Of a stretch of DNA of 64,000 nt, positions 2,154 through 56,737 are shown piece after piece. The notes beneath the pieces were generated by a model that was not told the DNA's origin, ran no database searches, and was given only the letters and a program-made list of their open reading frames with translations. The translations under genes were made by a program, and so were the position numbers. Source of the stretch: Ascidia mentula (Eukaryota > Chordata > Ascidiacea > Phlebobranchia > Ascidiidae); NCBI GenBank assembly GCA_947561715.1, contig OX387198.1, positions 2,356,001 through 2,420,000 of the forward strand, given 5' to 3'. Position 1 is the stretch's first letter. Each line of letters begins with the position of its first letter.

Positions 2154-4908
2154 CCATAAATCAAACCATTCCAAACCATATTCCTTGAGCTAATGCATTG
2201 CCGACTGTTACATCTCCAGACTATCACTGCACCTCCTTGACTGCGACGCAACAATGGTCACTGTGCGTAATAATCCATTTGTAAAATCATTGTTGTGGTT
2301 GTTGCTAAGTTCTGTTCATTTTCGTTCGCAACGTGAGAGTATGAGGTGCTCATTGTGACTGAATGAAGTTGTTGTATTTACACCTTAATGCAAAAAGGCA
2401 TTTGATAAATTGTGAAAATAAAGAACTAATTCACAAAAGTAAACAACATTGTGGTTGTTGTGACCTTGATATACCGTGGTTACGAATTGTTGAATAGGGC
2501 GGGACGGTTTGTTTTGACGAAATATATCCGTTACTATAGCCTAGCCCTTGTAGGCCTGGCGTATAAGAGTCTACACTTACGTATATAACTTAATGTGACA
2601 TATATGGGTAATTGTTTTTTGAAGGCCACGAAAATAATGCTATCTGTAACGTTTGTGGGTACATAGATTTGGGCGATTCTGTTGTTTTGTGCCACGAATT
2701 TTTCGCAAGACTTGTACAATCCAGCAGCAAGAAGTAAACTCCAATGCCGCAAGTTTAATTGCCGAGTAACACTTAACGTTCGACGCGGCGTACCGTGTGG
2801 TGATAGCAGGAAGAAATACAAAAAGACACGACCTTTGCTTCAGCTTCTATTGTTGTAAGCGGGGCGTGACGAAGCAACGGGCGAAGAACGCTGTCTGACC
2901 TGACATCATTTATATGTGTTTGTATTTGACTGCACGCAGTGCTGATGCCATTTTTTTTCTTGACAACACAATACAATATTGTTACGTAAGTCACTGATAA
3001 AAAAAAGAATCACATTGATGGGCAAAATTTTGTTGACAGCGATATGTTGCCGGAATGAAAAGATGATGTTGACTCAAATCGTTTTTATTTTGCATGAAAC
3101 TTTAATGAAGTTACAAAAAGTTTCGGCATCAAAAATGTTGGTCTTTTGTACAAAATTAGAAAACTACCGGTAAGGAATGTATTCTCCACGTCGAGTGAAC
3201 AATTGCCACGCCATCACGTGTAAAACAGTTTCCCAAGAAAGGCCCTGCGAGCGACGTCATTCCCGTTGGTTGGTTTGTGTGGCGTCAGAAGTCAACCTTG
3301 TGTAGAAGAAAACATGTCGCCAGACGTTCGATTGCGAAATTCAAGGCACAACAACAAAACACTGGAAGGTAACAACAACAAAAAATGGCGAAAATATTCC
3401 GGACTTTTCCATTATGTACATTGATCTGTTCCTAATAGTATAATGTGACAAATATCTAATGGTGACCATGCCAACCAAGCAAAGACCTCCTCTTTTTCGT
3501 GACATTCTTGTGTTTACCGTTTAGCTGTTTTACCTTAGGTTTCCTATCGGCTTAACACAAACATTTGCCTGACGTCAACCAAAGCTCGTGAGGTTTTAGG
3601 ATGGAGACTTGGAGAGTTTCAGTTCCTTTGTGTAGTAAACATATAGAGTGTGTTCAATATATCATTTGATTTGATACAGTTTTGTTTGCTATTACCGTCC
3701 ATTTGTGCTTTTTATATTTTATAAAAATAGGCTACAGTATTTCAAATAACAAATTTTTTGTTTAGGCCAAGTTGTTTATAATGGAGCTTGCTAAGGTATT
3801 GATACCAATGGTTCGCCGTGAGCCATGCTTGTATGATTCTAAACACAAAGATTACAAAGATAAGGAATTCAAAGAAAATGTATGGCTACGAATTAGTCAA
3901 AAAACGCATCAACCAGGTTAATTCTTTTGTTACATTGGCTACTGCTTTTGTGTTCCCAACAATTATGCAAGATGTTAATTTTTTAAAAAATATTCAGTGG
4001 ATGACTGCAAGGAAAGGTGGAAAAGTCTGCGTGATCGATTTTAAAAGTAAAAAAAGCTATGGATAGAAATAAAAAAAGTGCTAAAGGTAAAACAAGAGTT
4101 TGGAAGTACTACACAGATCTACAGTTCTTACAGGGTCATTTACGACTACCAATGTAAGCTATTTAAAATTCTATTGTGTTTTGTGAGTGTATAAAATTAT
4201 GTCTGTTTACAGTATTGTTGATAACCCTGATTCAGACACAACTGGATTTCCTGAAAATGGTATGTTATATCATGTGTTCAGTGACCAGATTTCGATATTT
4301 TTGCTGTGCGACGCACACGATAATTTTTCTCTCCATGTTCAATCACAATTACAAATCAACACCCTGTGCATAATATCAAAGATAATTTAATTACTTTTGA
4401 AATGTTTTGTAGAATCTCATGGAAATGAAATGGAAGAGGCAGATATTTCGTGTACATCAACTACTACAAACTCCTCACCGCTTTGTAAGAAACGAAAACT
4501 GTCAACCTCAGAGTCGCAGGTAAAAAAATTTTGCTTTATTTCATGTATGTATGTTTTTATTAAACTATTTGCCCTTTCACTAGGAAAACTTTGATCACAA
4601 CAATACACATTCAAAGGAATCAAAAACTCAGTCACAATCTCATTATAACTTTTCAAACTTTGGCAATTTTGTGGCAGATACACTTCAATCTATGCCTCTT
4701 AATTCTGCCTATAAAGCAATGGCCACAATATTACAGTGTTTAGGTGCTCATTGTATGAATACTGATGAAGTTTCAGGTATGTAAGATTGTTTTTTTTTAA
4801 TATTGATAAAGAAGCACTTTGTATAAATTTCTCTGTATAAGAGTGTTTTGTAAATGTGTAACATAATACACTTTTTGGTACAATGTTATTAACAGCTTCA
4901 GTTAGTTT

Positions 4909-8900: not shown

Positions 8901-10533
8901 CGTCACAATCCAATAAATAAGGTTATACATTCTCAAGTTTATTTGGACTAGTTTTTTCACAAAATCACCTTGCTTAACACTAACATGACAAAAGTATGAA
9001 AATATATTTTTATAAAACCTATTCAAGGTATTGAAGAGCCTGCAACTACTCCCTATAGCCCAAGGTTCACTGAACTATTAAATAGTCAACAAGTATATAC
9101 TGGGAATATTATCCAGAGAGCAATACAACAAACAGGTAATTTCATTGTTTATTACAAGCCCATTGATTTACATAACACATATGCAAAGTTATATTTTTTA
9201 AAGTTACAAAACATCACCAAGGGTGTAGCTTAGATTTACTTTTGTTTAATCACTTTCAAGGCACTGAACAGCATCCAACCACCCCTTATGATGTAACCCA
9301 TAATCAGTTTTCAAGTGATGAACAGATAAATGCAGGGAAAGTTATGCAGGAACAGCAGCAAACAGGTAATAAAAACAATATGAAAAAGACTGTGTCTGTT
9401 GTTGGTAACCCCTAGGAACAGACTGCTATCACCCCCGTTTTGAAAACTACTAGTATTGAAACATGAATAAGTTGTTATGTAAGAGAAATGTAGGAATACC
9501 ATTCAACAGAAATGCAAGCAATGTAAAATGCTTCAAAGAAATCTGTTGATTATACAGTGGATACAACATTTTATAATTAAATACCACTGTATCGGGAAAG
9601 TTCGGGAAAAATGAACATTTAGGACTTTCAAATATCACATATATCGTGACAAAAACATACATAGGTTTTACAGAAGATTTGTTGTTTTATGACATTACAA
9701 ATAACGGCATTGACGTGTATATTCTGTAATTTTTAACTAAACCAAATCAAATAAATTGTAAAACATTAAAAGTACGAAATCCTAAATTTATTTTTCCAAT
9801 ATGTCCCCTTTTAAAAAAAAATACACGTTTACCACTCTTTAGCGCCACCAAAAAAATTCCCCCGACAAAAGTGACACACGTTCGGGGTTTGAATCTGACA
9901 CGCGAACATTTGATGAAAACATCGGATTTGAATCAAGAACTTGAAAACAAACAAATAATTAGTGGTCATGTGATCCCACTGATGGAAACGATGAGACTCA
10001 AAATACAAAATATTAAAAACGTGGAAGAAGATATTAAATGCGAGAATCAAGTGTGGTGTTTGCACAACATTGAATTGAGTCAAGATGCAATCGGAGATTA
10101 TTCGTCCGAGGAATCAACAACTAAACTTGGACTTAAAATGATGAGGAAACAGTTTGGTGAAAACTCAGCAAAGCATGAAGTGTTCGCATATTTGTTACAC
10201 AACCTTGGTCATGTTTGCATGGAAACAAATCGACTGAATGAAAGCGTGGATTTTTATCAAAAATCAATCCAAGCTTTCAGAATGGCAACAGACATAACTG
10301 AAAGGGAAAGGGAGGAGTGGATTGAAATAAGTGAAAACAATTTAAGTGTTGTTGAATCAAAACTTGCACAAAGAAAATAATTGTGACATCACAAACACAA
10401 AATGTATGCTTTTGTAAAATATGTTTGAATTATGCATTGTTTAGGTAATTTACATGAAAATGGAAGTTAGCTACCATGCACTTAATGAATTTTGTGATTA
10501 TTATTTTCATGTCGCCAGTGATTTGTAGCTGAT

Positions 10534-15018: not shown

Positions 15019-16382
15019 TCATCAAAACATACTTCTGTCGCCTTGAACTTAAATCCCACACCGGCCGTGGAACTCAAAACATGATTCATAAACAACGTCA
15101 AACCGTAACTTTTGACAACAAGCCATGCCCTATAACAAATGAAACACTCTCGAACATATGTGCTTTATAATCTGGGTTGTTGGAATGGTGACCAACGTGA
15201 TGCACTACGGCGGGATAATAAAGACTGGCCAGGATTTTTGGGCCAGATTCGGTTCCGAATTTATAAGCTCACATTTTCGTTGTAATCTAATATCCTTTAC
15301 ACTTCAGCTACAAATGGCGCTACTAACTAAAATACACTGTATCACCGAAGCAATATAGTATACTGATCAGGAATATCTCAAACAGCAAGTTGTTGTGGTA
15401 ACACGAATTTTCTGCATCTGTCCTGTACTTTCTGAAGTGACTCGTTTCAAATTGCTGGGGCAGCCTTCGATCTACCTAATATATGGCGAATCGAGGCTCC
15501 AAACGCTTACGTTTTGCGCTGTCGTCTAACGTTGCCGACTAGCGCTGCCTCTTGCGCCGCCGTCTTGCGCTGCCGACCAGCGCTGGCGAAATCCATTCCC
15601 AGTTCACAAGTAGCGTTGAGGGAAATTCCGATTGTTACGTCACACAGTGGTTTGTGTAGTGAAGGGCATCATCAAATGCTTTTTACTTAGAGAATTGTTT
15701 TTGTTTCATCCATTCACAATTGGTCCGAGCTTTAATTTTAGAGACAATGTGGGTGATTGATGTGAAGCAGAAACAAAAAGCCAGGGCGAGTTGGGCACCA
15801 AGCGCACTTTAACTGCACGAGAAACAAGGTCGGTGTGCCGTTTGTGGACATAGCGAAATGGGGATAGTCATCACGCAGCTATAGGATGTGGGCTTGATTT
15901 CGCAAGACCTAACGGAACGCGTCGTTTTTAACATGTAAAGAAAATTGGTTTCGGTTCATTCATAATGCGCTTATGTTCATTTGGTCGTTTGGCTTAGGCC
16001 TACACTAGCACTTCCGTTTCCATTGGTAGCAGTGTCAGTTCAGGTATTTGCGACCAAAGCAAAATAAGTTTTTGAGTTATAGAGCAAGGTTGTGGCGCTT
16101 TTTCTAAATACCAGGTTTGTCAGAGTTTGGAATCAGTGTTATATTTATATATACCCTATCTGCCCAGAAGCCCTAACCATCCCTACTTATACAGGTCATT
16201 GTATGGTAATGGAAATACAGCTTATGATATGTTTAGTAATTAGTAACTGAAATCTTGTGACATGTTGTAATTCTCATTGATTTATAAGGTGTGCTTTTAA
16301 AAGTAAACCTAATTTAAAGGGCACATAAGCATTGTTTCAATAGTGGATATCTGTTTTCAAGGTATATCAGGTCAATGTTATA
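15019..16382. other. Gene 2 upstream region, no gene seen
   Basis: This DNA is not shared with the other units. Around 15515-15592 is a GC-rich patch of imperfect direct repeats built on TTGCGCTGCCG. No promoter element stands out and I see no coding exon in it. Confidence 0.5.
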
Positions 16383-19300
16383 ATGGACTTTAATAAAGAA
16401 CTTATAAAACTAGTCAAAGATTCACCATGTTTATATGATTGCAAACAAAAAGAATACAGAAGCGTCAAAAATAAACAAGATAAATGGACAGAAATCAGCC
16501 AAAAGCTTGGTCAAAGAGGTAAACCTGAACAGGGTTATCCAGGATTGTTTGAACAAAGAGTTTTGAATGTATTTGGGGAGTTTACGTTTTTTGCTTTTTG
16601 AGTTAGAGAAATTACTCTTAGGAATTTCGGAATATGGGTAATTGCTGAAGAAATGTCATTCCAGCAGGTCAACATATGGGACTAACATATAAGTCTATGT
16701 TGCTTAGACTTACTTGTGAATCTCATACATGACCTACTTGGTGGACAGTTTTTGTGCATCTACCTTAAATAAATACACCACAAAAGTTAATGTGACATAA
16801 ATACTAAATTGATCATTCCTCCTGTAAAAAAAACAACAAATATAGGCCTACACCTTGTGTTTAGGAAGGTTGTATTTTCTGACATTGCCTGCACGAACGA
16901 CCAGGCTTTGAGTCATAATTAGTTACAAGCAAAGTTAGTTACGGGCGGATTACTTAAATTTGTGAAAGTACTTTTTCCATCATTGTGATTAGGGAGAGAA
17001 TTTTGCTCGTAACTATTCATAAGTCCTGTTTGCCATGTTTGGACAATTGACTGGTGATTGGTGCTATTGTAACGTTTTTTGTTTTTTTTTGCTAATTTGC
17101 TATGCATGGCTAATAAATTAACTCTGTAAAGAGACTTTGAATAGAAAGATGCCTGTGATATGAAGCGTCATAAATCAAATTGTTCCAGACGCGTTATTGA
17201 CTGAGCGAGTATATAACTGCTACTTCTGTTAGTCTGAGTGAGTTACAGTTAGTTAGATGAGGTCGGGTCATCAGAAAATACAATCTTTTTACACAAAAGG
17301 TGCAAGTTACATTTGCTGTTGTTTTTTTTCCGAACATAAGAACGAACATAATTCATCATGCTACAAAACCATTTCACAATGGTTGAGGTCAGACCCCTGG
17401 CTCTGGATATACCCAAATTCAAATAAAATACAAGTCACACCAGCTGCACTGAGGAGACCCTTTAGGTCAAAACAGTAGCCATCTGTCTGCAGCTTACACA
17501 CAAAATACAAGTCGTTTATAATTATTTAAAATTTTAGTGGATGTGTGTGAAAGAAGATGGAAAAGTTTGCGTGATCGATTTAAGAGAGAGAAAACGAAGT
17601 TGGACAGCTTTCAAAATGATGAAGAGACCACAAATGAATCTAATTGGGAGCATTATAAGGATCTCCACTTCTTGCACGATCATTTAAGACCTAAACTGTG
17701 AGTGAGAGGGTAGTGGTTGTAGTCGGTGTGGGATTCACATGCAGCTGTAAGAAAATATATAATTCTGAAGTTTGTAAACAAACCATGCTTATGCCGATGA
17801 AAATACAATAAACAACACCGGATCGGTGAACCAAGCCACCCTGGTAGGCTGTCGATCGATACCGTATCTGTAGTAGCTGAGTAAAACTTTTAAATCAATC
17901 TTTCAGACAAACCATGCTTATTGGTCTTTTATATGCAAGTGAAATGGTTTATCTTTGTGTTACTCTTGTAATTAATACAGCAAACTGGCATTTATAGTGA
18001 TTTACACAAAAATTATAGCTGATTGGTTTACCTTAGTATTGTATGTCAATCAGTGATTCAAAACTGTAATCTTGTTGTGCAGAATGGTTGTCAATTGTAC
18101 TGCACACAACACTTGGTCACAGAAAACAGGTAGTAATAACAGTAGTTAAAATTCATGATATTCTTTTTTGTTAAAAAATATGTTTTTATTCATGTTTCAT
18201 TTAAGTAGATACAAGTGATGTTTTGGAGGAAGAAAGTACTTCATCCTCTTTTGACCCTTTTGTGATTGGTAAAAAACGAACAGCTTCATACCAAGATTGT
18301 GGGGTATTATGATTTGAGTGTATTTAGTAATTATTTTGCAAATTTCATTTCTTCCAGGAAAATCAGCACAACAAAAAAAGCCGACAATCTGTGGAATCAA
18401 AAACCACTCAAACTCTACAAACGTTTTCTACTTTTTACAATTTGATCTCAGAAAAACTTGAATCTATGCCCACTATTTCTGCCTATATAGCAATAGGCGA
18501 AATGACAAAGTATTTAGAGCAATATTGTGCTAATCCTAATAAAGTTTCAGGTATGTAACATCAATAGTTATATAATTAGTTCTCTTTCTTTTTGTGAATA
18601 CATTCATTAATGTGAGGGTTCTTAAACTGGTGGGTGTGAAAGGTTGACATGTATTGGGTGGGGATATAAAAGATATTGGAATACCTGACTAGCAACCTGT
18701 CAGCCATTTATGTTTGGTTTTTCTATGAAAAGGAATTTGTGACAAATCTAAGCAACCCTCAAAAGCTCCTTTTAATGTCACTTTTATTGCAATGGTAACT
18801 GTAATGTGATAATGATCATTACATTGACTCAAGTAGTTCTGGCATTCTGACTAGTTGTTTGTTCATATAATATGAATCAAGGATTTAAGGGCATGTGTGT
18901 TAAATCCAATTGGATATATTAATAAATAAAGCTATTCTAATAATGTTGTTATTGCTGGACTGGATGAACAACAACATACAGGTAGCAAACTATATAGAGC
19001 ATTAGATCAAGGGAATTTGTAATGTTTCAATACGTTTTTTTTTATTTAAGGAAACACAACATCAGCTGAGGTTAACACGGATGGTGCAAAAGAAGAACAT
19101 GCAGCCACCAGACTCAATCAGCAACATTATGAAGGTACAAACAACATAAACACATATTTTCGTGACCAGTGTATGAAGATACTGATATATAAAGTTACAA
19201 AAATACTGTGCAACCCACAGTAGCTTCAACATCCAACTACGACAACACAGAAATCATGTATATATGCTTTTATATGGGTAGGTAGGATTGCTTGCGGCAA

Positions 19301-22300: not shown

Positions 22301-24584
22301 AATTTAACGTTCTTTTGTTTCTTTGTTTTTTTTGCACATGAATCTTTATGTGACCCTACCTAGGCCTAATTCTTTTCATTTTTTTGAAAATCTGTAAAGT
22401 CTTGTACTGTATTTACTTGATTGTAAGCCACAGCTTGTAAAGTTTTTTAACCTACTGTTTCTGCGGTGATCAATCGAGGGCAGCTTATATTCGAGGGTGG
22501 CTGTGGCTCTGAGTTTCAATAAAATTCATGTTTAACTTGCTCTGCCTTACCAGTACGTTTTATCAAACACAGTTATCAGCGTACCTGACAATTTCAATGG
22601 ACAGATTTGTTGACAATTATTGTTATAGGGCACCTAAGGTTGCCTATGACATTAACATGTGGCATAAATTCGAAGGCGGCTTATATTAACTTTTGAACAC
22701 TGTCACAATTGAATAAATAAGGTTACACACTCTCAAGTTTATTTGCACTAGTTTTTTCACAAAATCACCAACTTGCTTAACACTAACATGACAAAAGTAT
22801 GAAAATATATTTTTGTAAAACCTATTCAAGGTATTGAAGAGCCTGCAACTACTCCTTATAGCCCAAGGTTCACTGAACTAATAAATAGTCAACAAGTATA
22901 TACTGGCAATATTATCCAGGGAGCAATACAACAAACAGGTAATTTCATTGTTTATTACAAGCCCATTGATTTACATAACACATATGCAAAGTTATATTTT
23001 TTAAAATTACAAAACATCACCAAGGGTGTAGCTTAGATTTATTTTTGTGTAATCACTTTCAAGGCACTGAACATCATCCAATCACCTCTTATGATGTAAC
23101 CCATGATCCTTTTTCAAGTGATGAACAGATAAATGCAGGAAAAGTTGTGCAGGGACGACAAAAGCAAACAGGTAATGAAAACAATTTGAAAAAACTGTAT
23201 CTGTTGTTGGTAACCCCTAGGAACAGACTGCTAGCACCCCCGTTTTGAAAACTACTAGTATTGAAGCATGAATAAGTTGTTATGTAAGAGGAATGTAGGA
23301 ATACCATTTAACAGAAATGCAACAATGTAAAATGCTTCAAAGGGAGCTGTTGAATATACAGTAGATACAACATTTTATAATTAAATACCACTGTATTTAA
23401 ATATATATGTGTAAACCAATGAGCAAGTACCAAAATCTTTCCAAAAACTTTCGGGAAAAATGAACATGTAGGACTTTCAAATATCACATATATCGTAGCA
23501 AAAACATACATGGTTTTACAGTACATTTGTTGTTTTATGACATCACAAATAACGGCATTGACGTGTATATTCTGTGATTTTTTACTAAATCTAATAAAAA
23601 TCCCTTTCTGATAAATTGTAAAACATTAAAAGTACGAAATCTTAAATTTATTTTTCCAATGTGTCCCCTTTTTTTTAAAAAAAATACACGTTTACCACTC
23701 TTTAGCGCCACCGAAAAAATTCCCCCGAAACACTGACACTTTGAATAGACCGCCAGGGTATGTGATGGTGGGAGGTTGGGTTTATTTATGTTTAAATTAA
23801 ATAAATTGTTTTTATTTCAGATGAAAACATCGATTCAAATTTTTTGATCCAAACTTACGTGAATTTGTTAAAAAAACAAAAATATTTTGAAGCAAATGAA
23901 ACAAGAAATCAACTTTCAAGGTCCCTTGAAGGTCGTGGGGAAACTGCGGAAGATTTGAGAACAACTGGACATGAAAAGAGATGGGAGGGAAAATATTTGG
24001 AATCGATTTCATTTTACGATGTTGCGTCTGAACTTTATGTCAAACGTGATGGAGATGAAGCGGCGGAAGGTGTGTGGAGTTGTGTTGCGGGTTTGAGTTG
24101 GACATGCGGAGATTTGATGAAAACATCGGATTCGAATCAAGAACTTGAAAACAAACAAATAATTAGTGATCATGTGATCCCACTGATGGAAACGATGAGA
24201 CTCAAAATACAAAATATTAAAAACGTGGAAGAAGATATCAGATGTCTAAGTGAAGCGTGGTGTTTGCACATGATTGAATGGAGTCAACTTTCAATCGGAG
24301 ATTATTCGTCGAGTGAATCAACAATTAAACTTGGACTTGAAATGATGAGGAAACAGTTTGGTGAAAACTCAGCAAAGCATGTAGTGTTCGGAGATTTGTT
24401 AAACAACCTTGGTCATGTTTGCATGGCAACAAATCGACTGAATGAAAGCGTGGATTTTTGTCGAAAAGCAATCCAAGCTTACAGAATGGCAACAGACATA
24501 ACTGAAGAGAGAAGGGAGAAGTGTATTGAAAAAAGTAAAAACAATTTAAGTGTTGTTCAATCAAAACTTGCACAAAGGACATAA
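16383..24584 (+). CDS. Gene 2: MADF-BESS-linker-TPR protein, 14 exons, intact
   Basis: Exons: 16383-16518, 17538-17697, 18083-18129, 18209-18303, 18358-18550, 19051-19134, 19628-19741, 20032-20151, 20462-20572, 21690-21815, 22138-22257, 22831-22938, 23064-23171 and 23821-24584. They sum to 762 codons with every junction in frame. Residues about 6-90 form a MADF domain (SPCLYDCKQKEYR, then CERRWKSLRDRF, then WEHYKDLHFL), known as a Myb-like DNA-binding fold. A KKR stretch sits near residue 135. Exon 5 has a BESS-like motif (LISEKLESMPTISAYIAIGE), a protein-interaction motif that often follows MADF. Residues about 211-507 are a Q/N/S/T-rich linker of phase-1 exons. Residues 508-761 are a TPR-like helical domain with GKYLESISFYDVASELY and LLNNLG..NRLNESVDF. 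A nuclear regulator binding a partner through the TPR is a fair inference; function is unknown. This copy retains the exon at 19628-19741 that is damaged in genes 1 and 4. The least certain junction is the donor at 18303/18304. Confidence 0.83.
20610..21340. repeat. Intronic dispersed repeat, gene 2 copy
   Basis: This corresponds to 6900-7640 of gene 1 and 52820-53540 of gene 4, with the CACTGTTCGACACGGGCGGCG core. It has no coding content. Confidence 0.4.
22385..22690. repeat. Intronic GGCAGCTTATATT repeat, gene 2 copy
   Basis: This is the same element as at 8590-8900 and 54575-54890, in the same intron, so it was inserted before the genes duplicated. Confidence 0.35.
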
Positions 24585-28626: not shown

Positions 28627-30528
28627 CTTACAAAAATGTATTACTTTTAGGCTTGTTGATGTACGACTGTGGCAAAATATTGGGAAGCCAAGACACATCA
28701 ATTACGATGGGTGGCATTTTTTGAGTTGCCTTCTTCTATGGTGGACATATAAAGAACCTTGGTTACATTTTAAGTAAGGGTCAACAGACTTGTCGATCTA
28801 TAAAAGGAGTAGGTGACCATTAAAAGATTGGAGAACACAGGCCCTACTTATACTTGTAAGGCTCAGTTAACTTCTATCAAGCAGACAACTTTTATTAGTG
28901 TTTAGTGGGCTGCAGACAGGGGCACTGTTTCGACCTAATAGTTCTCATCAGTGCAGCTATTTTCATTTGGACTGCTGCCGTACGTTTCAGCCATCTTAAT
29001 AAACGATTGTTTACCTGATTGGTGTTGGATATACGGAGTTTACAGCAGAACACGCATTAAACGCAACAGTATCAACAGCAAGAACACGCAAGCAGACTTA
29101 TCTTCACTCTTCAGCACTGCAGGCGGCCGAAATGATTTGGTACGCTGCAGCGTTTACCACCTTTTTTAATTTCTTTTCGACTTCTTCACTGAACGATTAA
29201 TTTTATTTACAAATATTCCAATGTGTTATGCAGCAAATAATGCCTAAAGTGCCCACACAGCGAAGTACATACTCGGCTAGTAGAAATCATTGACAGCCCT
29301 GCCGCACCGACACCGACTTGATGGAATTCTTACAGATTGATGTGTTCCGTTTTATGAAGATGGAAAGCATGTTTATGGCTGGACATACAAAGGTCGACCC
29401 ACCTATGCTGTGGCCTTTTGTTTGTCCATAGACTTTGATTTTCAATTAAAGGTTATTTGCGCTGTTGTATAGCAAAGTGAATGTGATTTCGGGTTATATA
29501 TGTCATGGTTATGGCCATTGTGTATTAAAGATTCACTGTGAAGTCAACTACCATTCGAACAGCAAATATTGCTGAAATGTCCCACGGTTCGTCACGACTG
29601 CTTAAAGACGATACAGCGTCCGGATTCCTGTTAACTCTCTCGTTTTCTGTCCTCCCGGGGTGGAATTCGCTCCAATTTGAATACGAGGTACGGCTGCTGT
29701 GTGTGAGGCAAAGGATGTCGTCTTTGGAAAGTTACTTTTACGAATAGTATCGCCCAAACGTTCGTAAGTGATGTTAATGGCATGTCGCAAGTATTCTTGA
29801 GTTGATTCGCAAATTTTAATCTGTATCAATCTGCGCGACCCCTTAGTTGTTGCACTGATAAAAACAAATTATCTTTGTGCATTATGTCAGAGAATTTCTC
29901 CGAATAAATATCATCTGGAACGTTAACAGCTTGTTAGGGGTGAGCGCGTCATTTTTCACGAAAGTTGGGAACCTCTGTATTGGAATAACCACGTGTTTAT
30001 CCTGGGTCTTGTGGAGATAACAAGAGAAGGGCAGTAAAATAGTATTTATCTGGCAGTAACATTAATCGTCATGTTCCAGTGTGGGAAGCTGAACCAAGAA
30101 TTGTTGGTTTCGATTTAAACAAAATCAATAATTCAACAGTTTTGACGATTGAAAGTGTTGGTCTCGCGTCTTGGGTTCAATGCATGCTGGCGACACTAAT
30201 TTCTCTGTAAAATCGACGTTAAGTCAAGTGCAAAGACACTTCTTTTATAGTTTGTTTGTTATTTGCGACACTTGGATCAACAAATCATGCTGCGCGTAAT
30301 TTGCAACCTCTGGTTACTTCAAGGTCATGTGAATGTCACGCTCTGAGACTTTCGCGTGTTGCGTGTTTTTTATGTAATTAATGTTTTTTTACCATTGTAT
30401 AATTGCAATGACAAAATCGTGTTTTTTTATTTATGTGCACAAATTATTTCCTTCAGTACAATAACCAGTATCCTCTACTTTAATGTTTTAGCAGCAGGAA
30501 AGTGTTTTTAAAATAAAACAACATCTCG
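28627..30528. other. Gap between SNAP-25 exons and the 7TM gene
   Basis: I searched both strands for the missing SNAP-25 exons (KCCG and MDQIN-type segments) and found none. No repeat or other gene is clear. An acceptor-like TTTTAG at about 30485-30490 could end a 5' UTR intron of the 7TM gene. Confidence 0.4.
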
Positions 30529-33419: not shown

Positions 33420-33670
33420 ACCGCTAGTTCCCTTTCGAAACCAGACAGCGATGGAACACAGAAGGTAGTTTACCTCTCTCAGTCGGCAGAAGCAAGGTTT
33501 GAGGACCGACTTTTGAAAGAGAAGTAATGTATTAGAAATTGATTTATTTAATTTTGTATCAGGCCTACTACTGGCTGTCTGGCTCTATATATTTTTTCCA
33601 CATTTTACTTAACTATTTTGCCAGTAGCCTACTATGTAAAGTTTTCAAAAATACTGATTAGTAGTTTAAT

Positions 33671-36600
33671 ATGGATTTTGGCGAGGTCCTTATACGAATG
33701 GTTCGCAAAGCAGGGTGTTTATACGATTCTGCAAACAAGGATTATAAAAACTCAGAAAAGAAAGAAAAAGTTTGGAAGCTAATCAGCAAAAAAACTGGCC
33801 AACCAGGTGAATCTTGGTTTATATCACTGATAATAACATGATATGTGATTGGAGGAATAATTATAACTAATTCGTATTTTCAGTGAATATATGCAAGGAC
33901 AGATGGAAAAGTTTACGTGATCGCTTTTTGAAGGTAAAAAAAGGTTTGGACAGCCTTGAAAAGAGCAGTAAAACTGGTGCAAGACAATGGGTGTATTATA
34001 AGGATCTTCAATTCTTGAAGCACCATTTAAGAAACAAACTGTAAGTAGAGCTGTAAATTTGTTTTTGTATTTTCATTTCAATACTTTGTTTGCAGAGTTG
34101 TGACCGATTTGGACGTCACGGATTTGGATATGACTGAGTTGTCAGAAACAGGTACCTGCAGCACATTGGTCATTTTTTTGCAGCAATTATATTGGTGAAA
34201 GGGAAATCTATGTGTCTTGTTGATTTGTAGAATCAGAAGCAAACGAAGCATTAGAGGAAGAGAGAATGTCGTCTGTCATGGACTTGCCACCTCCTTGCAA
34301 AAAGCGTAAGGCTGAACGCCAGGTAAATATGCACTCATAAGAATGTTATAAAAGAATATTATATAAACAGCAATTGCCTATCTTTGTTTTAGGAAAAAAC
34401 ACATAACACAACAACACCAACTCCCACACAAGCTGAATGTGAAGATGAGTTTTTAACTTTTGGAAACTTAGTGGCATGTAAGCTCAGACGTATGCCCAAG
34501 AAAAATGCAGACAAGATAATGCCCAAAATACTTGACTGTTTTGTGGAACATGCTGTGGACAAAGTGCCAGGTATGTGAAGTTCAGTTAACAAAACTTACA
34601 GCCTTCTCTATGTTTGTAAACCCAATATTGGCTTTTCTACATTTATAAATGTATATATATCCACTAACATTGTATATAACCCTATAGAAAATCAAGTAAA
34701 AGACAAAAACATACTGCAATATTCTTTGACTTCAGATTTAATTTTCTGTACCTGTCTGGCACACAATATTTTTCCACTCAAAATCTGAACATTTATTTTT
34801 CCAGTAATTTTCCTTACCTATGCATTTGACCAAAGTTGGTTGTTTTTGAAAATAAAGCATTAAATCAAGCAATACCAGTAACATATCTTCTCATGGCCAT
34901 ATACTCTTGCATTTGAGTGCCAACATAGATCCTACAACTAAACTTTACGGACACATTGTGTGGTGGCCACTTTGGGTAATTGGTTACCTGACATGCACAA
35001 CAGCAATTGTGATTAACATCAAGCAACATTTTTTTGTATTGTAAGTGTTTACAATGCATACAAAACATTTTTCCAGCCAATCCAATGAAAGTTAGTTATT
35101 GTTACACATCTTTCTTGCTTTGCAAATACAGATGATACCTCAGTGAATGGTTTCCACAACCCTGTGAACAATAATGGTGGAACTTGTTTCCCTGCACATC
35201 AAAGTGTCTTACCACCACAAACAGGTAATTTAATTAGATGAAAGTAAGTGTTATGGATTACTTTGAACGAAAAGTTTATGAAATGTTTGGCATTTTCAAT
35301 GGGTTAGTTATTGTAAACAGGTTGAAATGTTCGATACTGGCATGCATCTTGGATTAGTTGTAACTTGTAGCACAAATGTTTTTTGTTAATTTTAGTAAGT
35401 GCTGGAAATATCAACAACATTCTACAAAATCGAGGAATTCTTCCAAATCATGTCACACGGCAACCCCAGTACACTACACCAAGTTTTCCCACACAAACAG
35501 GTATTTTAACGATTGGTGTGTTTCTTTCCATTCTGTGCTTACAGACCTGCTTTATCAATCATCAAGTCTCTCACCGATCCATGTGTAAATTTACTGGAAG
35601 TCTTGCAACAAACTAAGTTTTACATTTCTTTAAATAAACAATGGGTGGAATGCAGCAGATAGGAAAGTTTAGGAGCAATTACTTTTCTTTTTTGCATTCT
35701 CTAGCCCCTTAAAACTTTAAACCCTTGGTGGTCCACGGACGCCGAGTATGGAACCACTAGTTTAAAATTTATCTACCAATTATAAACTTTTATTTTTTGT
35801 TTTAACTTCGGTACAACAAGAGTATTACAAAATAATCATTTCATTCAAATCAAATTTAGGATATACTTCAATTAATGGTGGAGGTCCTACTTATTTTGAA
35901 GTTCCTCTTTACCAAAACCATGCAGCACAACAAAACACAAATTCATCAGCTCCACCACAGCAAAGAGGTAGAACTGAAGAAATTTGCATCCTCTCCATAT
36001 ATTATCTACTTCTTGTACATAGATTTTAGTTTCATGAATGATGGAAGTTCCTATAATGCTGTCTCCAATTACCCACCAAGGAATGATCCCATAGTATTCA
36101 CCATTCCAACACAGCAATCTCTAAATACCGCACAAACGTCACAAACAGGTATAGATTCAACTAAGAATCAAAGTAATGTCACATGGAAATGCAAAAAAGG
36201 ACACATGGGCATGCATGTGTAGCAAATGTGTATTTCGCATTTTTTTTCTTCTAAGTCTTTTTTTTAAATATTGTGTCAAAGCAAAAACAAGATTTATAAC
36301 AAGAAAATATGCAGATATTAAGTCAATGTTATAAAACCAACAGAAGTTTTAAATTGCAGTCATCTATAAATCAAAATAGAATATAGGTGTTGCTGATAGA
36401 ATACAATGCCAACTAGATTCTGAAAAAAATAAGGAACCATTCTTATGCAGTGATATTATTGCAATTTGTCACACAAAAAACTTGGCGTCAATGTCATGTT
36501 GACTCTTGTAGTGTGGAGAGTATCGTAATATAAAGAAGTTTTAAATACCTGTTGGTTATGTTTTACTTTTATCATGACTTGATTTTTTTTTATCCTGAGT

Positions 36601-48200: not shown

Positions 48201-49095
48201 CCTGACATCCTTTATAGGTGTTTGTATTTGACTGCACGCAGTGCTGATGCCATTTTCCTTTCTTTGCAACACAAAACAATATTGTTACGTAAGTCAATGA
48301 TAAAAAAGAATCACATTGATGGGCAAAATTTTGTTGACAGCAATATGTTGTCGGAATAAAAATATGTTGTTGACTCCAATCGTTTTTATTTTGCATGAAA
48401 CTTTAATAAGTACAGTCAGCAACAAAATGTTTCGGCATCAAAAATGTTGGTCTTTTGTACAAAATTAGAAAACTACCGGTAAGGAATGTATTCTCCACGT
48501 CCAGTGAACAATTGCCACGGGATCACGTGTAAAATAGTTTTCCAGGAAAGGCCCTGCGACGTCATTCCCGTTGGTTGGTTTGTGTGGCGTCAGAAGTCAA
48601 ACTTGTGAAGAAGAAAACATGGCGCCAGACGTTCGATTGCGAAATAAGGCAACAAATAAGGTACAACAATAAAACACTGGAAGGTTACAACAACAAAAAA
48701 TGGCGAAAATATTCCGGACTTTTCCATAATATACATTTAACTGTTCTCAATTAATATGTGACAAATATCTAATGGTGATCATGCCAACCAAGCAAAGACT
48801 TCCTCTTTTTCGTGACATTCTTGTGTTTACCGTTTAGCTGTTTTACCTAAGATTTTCTGTTAGCCTAACACAAACATTTGTCTGACGTCAACTAAAGCTC
48901 GTGAGGTTTTACGATGGAAAGTTTCAGTTCCTCTGTGCGATGAAACATGTAAAGTGTGTTCAATCTGCATAAATACCATTGAGGATTGATACAATTGCTA
49001 GCAGCGTGAATTTGTGGTTTGAGTGGATTGCTTAATTTATAGTTTACAGTATTTCAAATAACAAAATTTTTGTTTAGACCCCAAAGTTGTTTATG
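45154..49095. repeat. Segmental duplication: upstream block, copy 2
   Basis: This is nearly identical to 1-3780. It carries the same MITE (47222-47456) and the same exon-like frame (about 46494-46690), and leads into gene 4 as the first copy leads into gene 1. No convincing protein gene was seen. Confidence 0.85.
47222..47456. mobile_element. hAT-type MITE family A, duplicate of 1918-2153
   Basis: CAGTGATTCCCAACC to GGTTGGGAAACACTG, with the same CCGTAAAT/CCATAAAT flanks as the first copy. It was copied with the block rather than inserted independently. Confidence 0.8.
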
Positions 49096-52000
49096 ATGGA
49101 GCTTGCTAAGGTGTTAATACCAATGGTTCGCCGTGAGCCATGCTTGTATGATTCTAAACACAAAGATTACAAAGATAAGGAATTCAAAGAAAATGTATGG
49201 CTAGAAATTAGTCAAAAAACACATCAATCAGGTTAATTCTTTTGTTGCATTGGCTACTACATTTGTATTTCGTTTTAATTTGTTGTTTACAAAACATTAC
49301 GTAATATGTTAATTTTATAAAAAAATATTCAGTGGATGACTGCAAGGAAAGATGGAAAAGTCTGCGTGATCGATTTTCAAAAGTAAAAAAAACTATGGAT
49401 AGAAATAAAAAAAGTGCTAAAGGTAAAACAAGAGTTTGGAAGTACTACAAGGATCTACAGTTCTTACAGGGTCATTTACGATTACCGATGTAAGCTATTT
49501 AAAAATTCTATTGTGTTTTGTGAGTGTATAAAATTATGTCTGTTTACAGTATTGTTGACAACCTTGATTCAGACACAACTGAATTTCCTGAAAAAGGTAT
49601 GTTATATTATGTTTTAGGTTTACAGGTTTTGCAGCCTATAGCTGTATCAGCCACTTTTTCCTGAAAACTCCGAGCGAGATTTAAAAAATCAGTCACCAGA
49701 CTTCGATATTTTTGCTGTTCGACGCACACGATAATTTTTTTCCCCATGTTCAATCGCAATTACAAAGCAACACCCTGTGTATAATGTTGAAGATAATTTA
49801 ATTACTTTTGAAATGTTATGTAGAATCTCATGGAAATGAAATGGAAGAGGCAGATATTTCGTGTACATCAACAACTACAAACTCCTCATCGCTTTGCAAG
49901 AAACGAAAACTGTCAACCTCAGAGTCGCAGGTAACAAAATTTTGCTTTATTTCATGTATGTATGTTATTATTCAACTATTTGCCCTTTTACCAGGAAAAC
50001 TTTGATCACAACAATACACATTCAAAGGAATCAAAAACTTATAACTTTTCAAACTTTGGCAATTTTGTGGCAGATACACTTCAATCTATGCCCCTTAATT
50101 CTGCCTATAAAGCAATGGCCACAATATTACAGTGTTTAGGTGCTCATTGTATGAATACTGAGGAAGTTTCAGGTATGTAAGATTGTTTTTTTTTAATATT
50201 GATAAAAAAGCACTTTGTATTAAATATCTCTGTATAAGAGTGTTTTGTAAGTGTGTAACATAATACACTTTTTGGTACAATGTTATTAACAGCGTCAGTT
50301 AGTTTAGTGTTTCCCAACCGATAGTACCACTCATAGGCGCCTAGTCCGGGGGGGGCAGGGGGGGCGGCGGCCCCCCAGGTTTTTCAAAATGGTAACGAGT
50401 GGCTTTTGCGCGCGTCTGTCCGCACCATGTTAACTCGTCGCATTCGTAACGTTCGAAGATAAAAAGACCTAAAACAATGCGTTTCTTGCACGACGCACAA
50501 AAATCATGTTGACCTAGATTTGCTCGCGTAGCTGACATCGGTTGTTGCAACGCGAGTCTCGCAGTATGATATGCCAACTGGTACTTATTGGTTGTGTAGT
50601 AGACCGATCTCGTGCGTTCGTCGTTAACGCCGCCCTTTTGGCTAATACGCCTTATGCGTTGAAATTCAAACACAGTTTTTCGATACTTGATGACGTCATA
50701 GTAACAAATTATGACGTCATAATATAGCCGCCCCCCCTGGAAAAATGAAAACTAGGCGCCTATGGTACCCCTAGTGGTACGCAAAAGCATTCCAGGTCGT
50801 ATGTGAGCGCCTTTCCGTAATTTGTGGATATAGTTCAAATTTAAAAAATTGCAAGTGATCTAAAAATGTTTGTTACTTCATCCCCTAGGTTACTTTGTAA
50901 TTTTGCTTTACCTCCAAGTGGTACGCAACCACAAAAAGGTTGGAAACCACTGGTTTATAGTGTAGAGTAGTGATGTAATGAAGCTTCGGTTTGCCAAATT
51001 TATTCGGCCGAATCTGCGATTTTGATGAAGATTCAGTTTTGGCTGAATAATTTGTTCTGATTCGGACAAAACCAAACTTATATGCTCATGAAAACGTTAT
51101 GAGATACCAACAATAGCATGTGAACTGTATTAATAATTTCCAATACTTTGAAAGATGATAATATTTTGGGTGCAAATCTTATCTTTTCCGTGTAATTGTG
51201 TATCACACAAATTTACAGTCTTAGCATGTACGCTCTCTAACAACATAACCTTAAAGAAATAGAAGCGATGGTGTTCAATGAAGTATTATTGTATTACCCA
51301 TGCCCGGTACAGGATCGTTAATATAACTTAAAAACTACCACAAAAACTCCTGAATATTTGGTTTCGGCCAGAACCGAACTTAGGACGATTCTGTACATCA
51401 CTAGTGTAGAATGTCAGGTTATGGGAATTTTTAATATTCTAATGCGTTTTTTTTGTTTAAGGAAACACAACATCCGCTGAGGTTAACACGGATGGTGCAA
51501 AGGAAGAACATGCAGCCACCAGACACAATCAGCAACATTATGAAGGTACAAACAACATAAACACATATTTTCGTGACTAGTGTATGAAGATACTGATATA
51601 CAAAGTTACAAAAATACTGTGCAACCCACAATAGCTTCAACATCCACCTACGACAACACAGAAATCATGTATTTTCTTTTAAATGGTAAGGTAGGACTGC
51701 TTGCAGCAAAGTTTTAAGTTTGGCGATTTAAAAAAATAAGCATGTTTAGTATAAATAAGCCCTTTTGTATTTTTGTAAGACTTACTCACAAAACTAAACA
51801 AGTGTTTTTGATGATGGTAAATAAATGTGGTCGTCTGGCAATTTGTTTATATTAATGTAACTTGCCTAGGATCTTAAGTTCACAGTTCACTGAGATCTAG
51901 ATAATTGTCATTTCTTATTTAGACTTTAAAGCTACTTTTGCAAAGCTTGGTTGTAACATAGATATACATTAATTTATAGGGCTCAGAAAATAATTTGCTT

Positions 52001-55000: not shown

Positions 55001-56737
55001 AATATATTTTTGTAAAACCTATTCAAGGTATTGAAGAGCCTGCAACTACTCCCTATAGCCCAAGGTTCACTGAACTATTAAATAGTCAACAAGTATATAC
55101 TGGGAATATTATCCAGAGAGCAATGCAACAAACAGGTAATTTTATTGTTTATTACAAGCCCATTGATTTACATAACACTATTGCAAAAACAAATGCAATA
55201 TTTTTTCGAATTACAAAACATCACCAAGTGTGTAGCTTAGATTTAGTTTTGTTTAATCACTTTCAAGGCACTGAACAGCATCAAACCTCTTATGATGTAA
55301 CCCATAATCAGTTTTCAAGTGATGAACAGATAAATGCAGGAAAAGTTGTGCAGGAACAACAGCAAACAGGTACTGAAAACAATTTTAAAAAAACTGTATC
55401 TGTTGTTGGTAACCCCTAGGAACAGACTGCTAGCACCCCCGTTTTGAAAACTACTAGTATTGAAACATGAATAAGTTGTTATGCAAGAGAAATGTAGGAA
55501 TACCATTTAACAGAAATGCAAGCAATGTAAAATGCTTCAAAGGGAGCTGTTGATTATACAGTAGATACAACATTTTATAATTAAATACTACTGTATCGGG
55601 AAAGTTCGTGAAAAATGAACATTTAGGACTTTCAAATATCATATATATATCGTGACAAAAACATACATAGGTTTTACATTTGTTGTTTTATGACATCACA
55701 AATAACGGCATTGACGTGTATATTCTGTGATTTTTTACTAAACCTAATCAAAATTCCTTGTCTGGTAAATCGTAAAACATAAAAGATACGAAATTTTAAA
55801 TTTATTTTTCCAATATGTCCCCTTTTTAAAAAAATACACGTTTACCACTCTTTAGCGCCACCAAAAAAAATTCCCCCCCGAAACACTGACACTTTGAATA
55901 GACCGCCAGGGTATTTAATGGCGGGAGGTTGCATTTATTTTTGTTTAAATTAAATAAATTGTTTTTATTTCAGATGGAAACATCGATTCAACTTTTTTGA
56001 TCCAAACTTACGTGAATTTGTTGGAAAAACATAAATATTTTGAAGCAAATGAAACAAGAAACCAACTTTCAAGGTCGCTTGAAGGTCGTGGGGAAACTGC
56101 GGAAGATTTGGAAACAACTGGACGTGAAAAGAGAAGAGAGGGAAAATATTTGGAATCGATTTTATTTTTCGATGTTGCGTCTGAACTTTATGTCAAATGT
56201 GATGGAGATGAAGCGGTGGAAGGTGTGAAGGATTGTGTTTGGGGTTTGAGATGGACATGCAGAGATTTGATGAAAACATGGGATTCGAATCAACAACTTG
56301 AAAACAAACGAATAATTCGTGATCATGTGATCCCACTCATGCAAGCGACGAGACTCAAAATACAAAATATTGAAAACGTGGAAGAAGATATTAAATGTAA
56401 GAAACAAGTGTGGTGTTTGCACTCGATTGAATGGAGTCGAGATTCAATCGGAGATTATTCGTCGAGGGAATCAACAATTAAACGTGGACTTGAAATGATG
56501 AGGAAACAGTTTGGTGAAAACTCAGCAAAGCATTTTGTGTTCGGAGCTTTGTTAAACAACCTTGGTGTTGTTTACGAGGAAACAAATCGACTGAATGAAA
56601 GTGTGGATTTTTATAAAAAAGCAATCCAAGCTTACAGAACGGCAACAGACATAAGTGAAGATATAAGGGAGACATGCATTGAAGAAAGTGAAAACAATTT
56701 AAGTGAAGTTGAATCAAAACTTGCACAAAGGAAATAA
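49096..56737 (+). CDS. Gene 4: MADF-BESS-linker-TPR protein, 13 exons, intact
   Basis: Exons: 49096-49231 (an in-frame ATG also lies just before, at 49093), 49333-49489, 49550-49596, 49824-49930, 49995-50172, 51462-51545, 52239-52358, 52668-52778, 53882-54007, 54333-54452, 55028-55135, 55268-55369 and 55974-56737. They sum to 720 codons, all in frame. MADF: EPCLYDSKHKDYK, CKERWKSLRDRF, WKYYKDLQFLQGHL. CKKRKL is a likely nuclear signal (about residue 140). BESS-like: FGNFVADTLQSMPLNSAYKA. The linker spans about 209-465 and the TPR-like domain 466-719. It is the close sister of gene 1 in its 5' half, but its MADF exon 2 is whole. An exon present in gene 2 (19628-19741) is reduced here to a damaged piece near 52065; because linker exons are phase 1 at both ends, skipping it keeps the frame. 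The intron at 50173-51461 is filled with MITEs. Confidence 0.85.
50306..50952. mobile_element. hAT-type MITE family A, split by a nested insertion
   Basis: The left end is TAGTGTTTCCCAACCG and the right end GGTTGGAAACCACTG, followed by GTTTATAG (50953-50960). The same GTTTATAG precedes this element's left end in the 43.7-kb gene fragment, consistent with an 8-bp target duplication. It is interrupted by the element at 50332-50764, which is absent from the gene 1 copy. Confidence 0.75.
50332..50764. mobile_element. Nested MITE with CATAGGCGCC ends, 433 bp
   Basis: The ends CATAGGCGCCTAGT and ACTAGGCGCCTATG are inverted repeats, followed inward by long G runs at one end and C runs at the other. 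The flanks GTACCACT (50324-50331) and GTACCCCT (50765-50772) form an 8-bp target duplication with one mismatch, so it is hAT-like. No gene is seen. It inserted into the older MITE after genes 1 and 4 separated. Confidence 0.85.
50968..51403. mobile_element. hAT-type MITE (family B), 436 bp
   Basis: It begins TAGTGATGTAATG and ends TGTACATCACTA. The flanks GTGTAGAG (50960-50967) and GTGTAGAA (51404-51411) are an 8-bp target duplication with one mismatch. Its termini resemble those of the 32412-32854 element but the inside differs. It sits directly against the target duplication of the preceding MITE. Confidence 0.8.
52820..53540. repeat. Intronic dispersed repeat, gene 4 copy
   Basis: Corresponds to 6900-7640 and 20610-21340. 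Non-coding. Confidence 0.4.
54575..54890. repeat. Intronic GGCAGCTTATATT repeat, gene 4 copy
   Basis: Corresponds to 8590-8900 and 22385-22690. Non-coding. Confidence 0.35.

What the first reader, a model, noticed from the sequence alone, without database searches (positions are those of the whole stretch)
23821..24584. TPR exon is hypervariable on its ligand-contact face
Seen: genes 3 and 4 (37934-38697 and 55974-56737) differ by 38 amino acids in this exon. I count only about three synonymous codon changes, and their flanking introns and 3' UTRs are nearly identical. Changed codons often carry two or three substitutions between unchanged neighbours. In the last TPR (LLxNLGxVxxxTNRLNESVDF) genes 1-4 vary at helix-A positions 2 (Y/D/G/A), 5 (H/N/H/N), 9 (H/H/G/V), 12 (M/M/E/E) and 13 (E/A/K/E). 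In the first TPR (EGKYLESI) genes 2-4 vary at 5, 9 and 13. Known: positions 2, 5, 9, 12 and 13 line the concave binding groove of TPR proteins. Inference: strong diversifying selection on ligand recognition, as in immune or allorecognition receptors.
Basis: partly seen in the sequence, partly recalled or inferred. Interest (0 to 1): 0.9.

Follow-up and report, generated by a model that had tools for sequence, protein, structure and literature searches.

The report
Sea squirt receptors with hypervariable grooves
A genome that looks like a sea squirt's carries a very large gene family whose predicted binding groove differs from copy to copy while the rest of each gene stays much the same, which looks like an inherited repertoire of recognition receptors working inside cells.

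Summary
Genes 3 and 4 differ by exactly 38 amino acids with 3 synonymous codons. Across 23 near-complete copies of this exon in one 0.8-Mb array, 251 of 253 pairs have dN>dS; whole-exon pN/pS is 1.67 (95% CI 1.27-2.29). The exon is predicted as a confident TPR-like superhelix (pLDDT 95). In the four repeats whose register is fixed by consensus residues, 7 of 9 hypervariable sites fall on groove positions 2/5/6/9/12/13 (P 1.3e-5). A second set of 13 copies agrees; 8 copies on another chromosome do so more weakly. The 36 copies of the first two sets all have different grooves. The neighbouring heads are conserved: kinase pN/pS 0.39, MADF 0.23. The kinase's best solved match is RIPK1. Kinase and MADF heads are interspersed in the array and end in the same splice phase. 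Copies exchange sequence over short distances. Best reading: a germline repertoire of intracellular receptors under diversifying selection. Splicing, expression, ligand and immune role are inferred.

The parts
23821..24584 (+). Gene 2 hypervariable TPR exon (terminal exon, stop included)
   Evidence: Open frame, acceptor AG, split first codon; AF2 pLDDT 95.2, 11 helices
37934..38697 (+). Gene 3 hypervariable TPR exon
55974..56737 (+). Gene 4 hypervariable TPR exon
   Evidence: Pfam TPR_10 28.4 bits, above its 27.5 cutoff
9886..10380 (+). Gene 1 TPR exon, 5' part (about 88 aa) missing
49081..49231 (+). Gene 4 MADF exon 1 (5' end not settled; an ATG lies inside)
   Evidence: Pfam MADF; GT donor
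49333..49489 (+). Gene 4 MADF exon 2
   Evidence: Pfam MADF; AG/GT borders
49550..49596 (+). Gene 4 predicted exon 3
   Evidence: AG/GT borders, frame kept
49824..49930 (+). Gene 4 predicted exon 4
   Evidence: AG/GT borders, frame kept
49995..50172 (+). Gene 4 predicted exon 5, ends one base into a codon and fits the TPR exon
   Evidence: Joined frame of 467 aa without internal stop
16344..16598 (+). ORF with first half of MADF, upstream of gene 2 TPR exon (ORF limits, not exon limits)
   Evidence: Pfam MADF 3.8e-10
17522..17698 (+). ORF with second half of MADF, upstream of gene 2 TPR exon (ORF limits)
   Evidence: Pfam MADF 3.1e-10
33665..33838 (+). ORF with first half of MADF, upstream of gene 3 TPR exon (ORF limits)
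   Evidence: Similarity to gene 4 MADF exon 1; MADF hit at C2:2389689
33871..34041 (+). ORF with second half of MADF, upstream of gene 3 TPR exon (ORF limits)
   Evidence: MADF hit at C2:2389877
3766..3918 (+). ORF with first half of MADF, upstream of gene 1 TPR exon (ORF limits)

Best explanation
This exon is the ligand-sensing tail of a germline-encoded repertoire of intracellular receptors in an ascidian (sizes fit Ascidia mentula). Each gene joins a conserved head to a TPR superhelix: either a RIPK1-like kinase head or a MADF (Myb/SANT-like) DNA-binding head. The concave groove of the TPR tail works like a paratope. Mutations at groove codons are favoured by diversifying selection, and short-tract gene conversion among dozens of tandem copies reassorts them, so copies carry different grooves. 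Binding of a ligand, most likely a peptide or surface of a pathogen or of a variable self protein, would then switch on kinase signalling or transcription. Shown here: the copy array, dN>dS, groove enrichment, conserved heads, matching splice phase, and fast decay of association between variable sites. Inferred: splicing of heads to tails, expression, ligand binding, and an immune rather than another recognition role.
For: dN>dS in 251/253 pairs of 23 array exons and 75/78 pairs of 13 further exons; whole-exon pN/pS 1.67, codon-bootstrap CI 1.27-2.29; 11 of 11 disjoint neighbour pairs. Consensus-anchored groove (TPR 1, 2, 4, 5; positions 2/5/6/9/12/13): mean entropy 1.27 against 0.37 in group A and 1.26 against 0.36 in group B; 7 of 9 hypervariable sites, P 1.3e-5; shifts by 1, 2, 5 or 6 residues give 0.22-0.58 in A; pN/pS 2.84 against 1.17 (A) and 3.11 against 0.97 (B). 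With TPR 3 and the cap helix included, 13 of 16, but there I set the register after seeing the variable sites. Register-free: 15 of 16 hypervariable sites in A-type helices, P 1.8e-5. AF2 model pLDDT 95.2, pTM 0.91. Amino-acid difference at the 16 sites is 0.79 within A, 0.71 within B, 0.79 between, whereas non-groove sites rise from 0.14-0.15 to 0.25; 36 of 36 strings distinct; A pairs differ at 6-16 of 16 sites. Trp is 8.7% at the 16 sites against 0.2% at non-groove sites; no Pro at the 16 sites. Kinase exons: 0/66 pairs dN>dS, ratio 0.39; MADF ratio 0.23, 3/45 pairs. Best solved match of the kinase RIPK1; TAK1, RIPK2-4, MLKL and IRAK4 are among the 60 of 1534 shown. 26 of 27 plus-strand array tails follow a MADF or kinase hit. 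Gene 4 joined frame open over 467 aa; 10 of 10 array kinase loci printed end at the same phase. r2 between biallelic sites reaches the independence level (0.045) by 100-250 bp in flanks and by 10-30 bp in the exon. The groove positions are those that bind ligand in HOP TPR1/TPR2A (PMC1261162, passages).
Against: No transcript, ligand or immune assay. Head-to-tail splicing rests on order, orientation and phase; head hits lie about 4-15 kb before the tail, and four tails have two kinase hits before them. dN exceeds the upstream flank's divergence in only 163 of 253 A pairs (downstream 226), and in group B the flanks are more divergent than the exon (mean 0.44 and 0.30), so dN exceeds them in only 29 and 24 of 78 pairs. 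Non-groove sites of group A are not under strong purifying selection (pN/pS 1.30), and loops give 3.45 because their pS is very low, 0.022. Sites 96, 164 and 187 are hypervariable outside the groove set, and the first TPR's groove is nearly conserved. In the C69 group only 9 of 28 pairs have dN>dS, though groove exceeds non-groove (1.45 against 0.72, which used the full register). In 17 loci with 700 bp of upstream sequence r2 stays at 0.11 beyond 100 bp, so decay there is incomplete. One genome: no population or species comparison.
Confidence: 0.7

Rival explanations
1. Self/non-self recognition in reproduction (a self-sterility or gamete-recognition system) rather than pathogen sensing: the groove reads a variable self ligand.
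For: Ascidians have multi-allelic self-sterility systems (Ciona; PMC7018956, search listing and start of abstract only). Saturated, copy-specific grooves fit any recognition role.
Against: The heads are a RIPK1-like kinase and a DNA-binding domain, which fit signalling inside a cell rather than at gamete surfaces. The copy number (150 scored TPR exons, a lower bound) is far above a few gene pairs.
Confidence: 0.15
2. A targeted mutational process (programmed or hotspot hypermutation of groove codons) makes the variation, with selection playing a minor part.
For: First and second positions of the 23 most variable codons differ in 48-50% of A pairs, while sites 85, 156, 191 and 230 keep one third base in all 36 copies. 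Association between sites decays faster in the exon than in the flanks.
Against: All four bases occur at several variable positions, for example the first and the second position of site 191, unlike the one-base bias of known diversity-generating retroelements (recalled). Adjacent double differences exceed expectation less across codon borders (1.7-fold in A, 1.9 in B) than within codons (2.9 and 3.0 in A, 2.8 and 2.3 in B), as selection on codons predicts. 136 of 150 scored exons carry no stop flag.
Confidence: 0.1
3. Ordinary specialisation: a large TPR adaptor or co-chaperone family whose members bind many different endogenous partners.
For: The same TPR positions vary across TPR proteins in general (PMC1261162, passages).
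Against: Here the variation lies between copies with mean dS 0.065 and exceeds flanking DNA at groove codons. The 36 copies compared all differ, and two groups share the same saturated alphabet, unlike stable partner-specific grooves.
Confidence: 0.12
4. Relaxed constraint or a gene conversion artefact: decaying copies with inflated dN/dS.
For: Some copies are truncated or carry stops (14 of 150 rows flagged; gene 1; the minus-strand copy). Non-groove sites show ratios near 1.
Against: Relaxation gives dN/dS near 1, not above; it would not pick the groove face nor spare the heads. Gene conversion alone acts on silent and replacement sites alike.
Confidence: 0.03

Closest known systems
Fungal HNWD NLR receptors (het-d, het-e of Podospora)
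   Same: A sensor made of repeats, a few hypervariable codons under diversifying selection on the predicted interaction face, the rest homogenised by recombination, joined to a signalling part (PMC12222747 and PMC9815663, passages).
   Different: Here the sensor is a TPR groove, not a WD40 propeller; exchange is between many tandem genes, not between repeats of one gene; no NACHT domain was found in the pieces scanned; the heads are RIPK1-like kinase or MADF.
RIPK-family kinases
   Same: The kinase exon matches RIPK1 best among solved structures.
   Different: Predicted to be joined to a TPR tail and present in a large tandem expansion; no DEATH or RHIM region was seen in the exons scanned.
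MADF-domain transcription factors
   Same: A full MADF domain, 5.1e-23.
   Different: Predicted to be spliced to a hypervariable TPR tail; no title or abstract start listed described that.
TPR peptide-binding proteins (HOP type)
   Same: Same fold class, and the positions that bind ligand there are the variable ones here (PMC1261162, passages).
   Different: A set of near-identical copies that differ at those positions, instead of one domain with one partner.

Membership tests
TPR superfamily | Tandem antiparallel helix pairs with TPR consensus | tested here: met
   Gene 4 exon passes the TPR_10 cutoff (28.4 vs 27.5 bits); genes 1-3 fall below the Pfam cutoffs; AF2 model of 11 helices, pLDDT 95.2
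Diversified recognition-receptor family | Multigene family with a hypervariable ligand face and dN>dS there | tested here: met
   'ligand face' by TPR register only
Diversified recognition-receptor family | Binding of a non-self or variable ligand | not testable with these tools
   No ligand or binding data
Diversified recognition-receptor family | Variation between individuals | not testable with these tools
   Only one assembly was available
NLR (NACHT or NB-ARC) receptors | Central NACHT or NB-ARC NTPase | tested here: not met
   Pfam scans of the chosen ORFs and exons found TPR, MADF and kinase but no NACHT or NB-ARC; N-terminal exons not all covered
RIPK kinases | RIPK-like kinase domain | tested here: met
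   Pkinase 1.6e-35; RIPK1 4neu E 3.7e-22
RIPK kinases | DEATH, CARD or RHIM region | tested here: inconclusive
   Not seen in the exons scanned; the full kinase gene was not assembled
MADF transcription factors | MADF DNA-binding domain | tested here: met
   PF10545 5.1e-23 over profile positions 1-84 in the joined gene 4 frame

The most novel reading that the evidence does not exclude
The arrays are one recombining cassette pool: a paratope-like TPR exon, shared by exon shuffling between kinase-head and transcription-factor-head receptors, is reassorted among genes by short-tract gene conversion, giving a chordate an anticipatory inherited repertoire of intracellular receptors with two alternative outputs.
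Probability: 0.4. Interest if true: 0.93.

Novelty: new variant of a known kind. Interest (0 to 1): 0.82.

Why it matters
Tunicates are the sister group of vertebrates (PMC7344649, start of abstract). A large set of intracellular receptors with a randomised-looking binding groove on a TPR scaffold would be an animal counterpart of the fungal repeat-based receptors, joined straight to a RIPK-like kinase or to a DNA-binding head. It would show another way to build a recognition repertoire in the germline. If the species is right it can be tested now: the paper on the assembly lists RNA reads and an alternate haplotype.

Tried and rejected
Protein search against 5.8 billion sequences with the TPR exon: 669 candidates, none at E<=0.001. 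Solved structures by sequence gave only weak matches (best E 0.0029, a designed CTPR). PF01341 (GH6) was searched as a lead for a tunicate, not as proof: 2 hits, none in the 14 control genomes; I did not check that they belong to a cellulose synthase. A BESS motif after MADF was considered, but Pfam gave no hit at E<=0.01, and it is not claimed. Two pools by head type: between-minus-within distance is 0.0097 in the exon (permutation p 0.001) and not significant in flanks (p 0.31 and 0.77), so exchange between head types is not complete in the exon. Physical distance does not predict dN or dS. No site-wise codon model was run, because the copies recombine and no single tree fits; pairwise counts and flank comparison were used instead. 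My first groove test set the register of TPR 3 and of the cap helix after seeing which sites vary, which is circular; repeat it on the consensus-anchored repeats only, and those numbers are the ones to use. Rows dropped: of 27 plus-strand array tails, four broken or truncated ones (L010 second hit, L013, L025, L031) were left out of group A; L017, which ends 8 residues early at a stop, was kept (without it 230 of 231). The MADF estimate uses 10 of 16 loci with a MADF match, one type only, and includes about three codons of intron.

Full report
WHAT IS THERE. The finding lies in a terminal exon of 764 bases (23821-24584). Its first two bases complete a split codon; the rest is 253 codons plus stop. 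Three open copies lie in the window on the plus strand; a fourth (gene 1) lacks about 88 residues at its start, and a broken copy lies on the minus strand. The window is C2:2356001-2420000 of a 195.8-Mb assembly in 79 contigs. Contig C2 is 19,883,144 bases and C69 22,343,712. The Ascidia mentula assembly has a span of 197.0 Mb in 95 scaffolds, 9 chromosomes, chromosome 2 of 19.88 Mb and chromosome 5 of 22.35 Mb (PMC11109543, part 1 of 3 of the text). Chromosome 2 fits to the last printed digit; C69 and the total fit closely but not exactly. I take the genome to be that species, as an inference. Two GH6 hits, none in 14 control genomes, agree with a tunicate (that animals with GH6 are tunicates is recalled).

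THE FAMILY. A genome search with the exon's protein scored 150 of 293 candidates, all matching; 14 of the 150 rows carry an in-frame stop flag. A query from chromosome C69 lists further relatives there that the first search did not show. These counts are lower bounds. Twenty-seven plus-strand copies form one array at C2:2.27-3.05 Mb. No relative was found among 5.8 billion predicted proteins.

SELECTION. Genes 3 and 4 differ at 38 amino acids and 3 synonymous codons, exactly as reported; 12 of the 38 codons carry multiple changes. Among 23 array copies (group A), dN exceeds dS in 251 of 253 pairs (means 0.112 and 0.065); among 13 copies elsewhere on C2 (group B), in 75 of 78. Disjoint neighbour pairs give 11 of 11, and whole-exon pN/pS is 1.67 (1.27-2.29). 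Against flanks the picture is less uniform: dN exceeds upstream divergence in 163 of 253 A pairs and downstream in 226; in group B the flanks are much more divergent than the exon (29 and 24 of 78). The heads act as internal controls: 12 kinase exons, 0 of 66 pairs, ratio 0.39; 10 MADF domains, 3 of 45 pairs, ratio 0.23.

WHERE THE VARIATION SITS. AlphaFold2 on an alignment of five window sequences gave pLDDT 95.2 and eleven helices. I could not read coordinates and the structure search was off, so I used the TPR register. [quoted passage not shown] My first test over all six A-type helices found 13 of 16 hypervariable sites (group A entropy at least 1.8 bits) in the groove, but the register of TPR 3 and of the cap had been set after seeing the variable sites. 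Restricted to TPR 1, 2, 4 and 5, whose register is fixed by consensus residues, 7 of 9 hypervariable sites lie among 24 groove sites of 173 (P 1.3e-5); mean entropy is 1.27 against 0.37 in A and 1.26 against 0.36 in B; pN/pS is 2.84 against 1.17 in A and 3.11 against 0.97 in B. Shifting the register by 1, 2, 5 or 6 gives 0.22-0.58 in A, while 3 or 4 (same helix face) gives 0.81-1.02. Without any register, 15 of 16 lie in A-type helices (109 of 253 residues, P 1.8e-5). Exceptions are sites 96, 164 and 187, and the nearly conserved groove of the first TPR. Per-site entropies of A and B correlate (rho 0.55). Eight copies on chromosome C69, 40-43% identical to gene 2's exon, have groove pN/pS 1.45 against 0.72 outside, but only 9 of 28 pairs with dN>dS over the exon.

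SATURATION AND ALPHABET. At the 16 sites amino-acid difference is 0.79 within A, 0.71 within B and 0.79 between, so they look saturated, while non-groove sites rise from 0.14-0.15 within to 0.25 between; 63 of 79 codon types seen in B also occur in A; the 36 copies have 36 distinct strings. Tryptophan makes up 8.7% of residues there against 0.2% at non-groove sites, arginine 18% against 6%, and proline is absent. Four of the 16 sites keep one third base in all 36 copies while the first two bases vary. First and second positions of 30 groove codons have pi 0.38 against 0.093 in flanks (full register).

REASSORTMENT. Treating group A copies as a sample, r2 between biallelic exon sites is 0.25 under 10 bp and 0.06 at 10-30 bp, against 0.045 expected for independence; 1454 of 1596 site pairs show all four combinations. 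In the flanks r2 is 0.24 and 0.13 at 10-30 bp and 0.05-0.06 at 100-250 bp; in 17 loci with 700 bp of upstream sequence it stays at 0.11 beyond 100 bp. Short-tract gene conversion explains the flanks best; in the exon recurrent mutation may add to it. Physical distance does not predict divergence.

ARCHITECTURE. Listing TPR, MADF and kinase hits in order, 26 of 27 plus-strand tails follow a MADF or a kinase hit (from; the kinase list shows only the 150 scored of 319 candidates). For gene 4, five exons with AG/GT borders join to the TPR exon in an open frame of 467 residues with a full MADF domain, 5.1e-23; the start of its first exon is not settled. In the 10 kinase loci printed (of 12 fetched), the likely donor after the kinase leaves one base, the phase that the TPR exon needs. 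In four of six kinase-head loci fetched with their upstream DNA (L011, L020, L022, L028), similarity to gene 4 reaches up to about 5.2 kb before the tail and stops short of the MADF exons, which fits a shared tail and intron behind two different heads. The kinase is closest to RIPK1 among solved structures. Splicing itself is not shown.

JUDGEMENT. Diversifying selection on a TPR groove is well supported. A repertoire of intracellular recognition receptors is the best explanation; immunity is more likely than gamete recognition because of the heads, but unproven. It works like the fungal HNWD receptors, where a few codons on the interaction face are hypervariable and the rest is homogenised (PMC12222747, PMC9815663, passages), but nothing shows it to be an NLR: no NACHT was found in the pieces scanned. 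The passages seen of PMC8195603, a study of apoptosis and immunity domains, do not mention it (12 of 30 places shown). Seven paper searches aimed at the family listed no title or abstract start that describes it; the lists were capped and the library lacks most subscription journals, so this is weak evidence of novelty. The mended groove test and the mended account of intron similarity did not change the scores.

Noticed in passing
window 58242-61000, minus strand: A kinase-TPR gene in the opposite direction with in-frame stops in kinase and tail, probably a pseudogene; kinase hits 99% and 95% identical lie at C2:2256027 and C2:2728559 next to blocks of minus-strand TPR exons.
   Followed up: partly
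window 30517-31503, plus strand: A single-exon, hydrophobic ORF of 328 aa without Pfam match, with three full-length copies 96-97% identical near other array units and more distant relatives (22-40%) across the genome; possibly an orphan 7TM receptor family.
   Followed up: partly
C2:2.23-2.25 and 2.58-2.72 Mb, minus strand: TPR exons in groups of about three spaced 1.4-2.5 kb, as if some genes carry several TPR modules.
   Followed up: no
C1:1.95-2.74 Mb and C70:6.77-6.93 Mb: Further clusters of related kinase exons with no TPR exon listed there by the searches made (capped lists); their partner domains are unknown.
   Followed up: no
window 3979-4154: Gene 1's second MADF exon matches in two frames, which suggests a frameshift besides its truncated tail.
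   Followed up: no
C2:2.28-2.95 Mb, plus strand: Four array tails have two kinase hits before them, so either kinase genes without this tail or two-kinase genes exist in the array.
   Followed up: no
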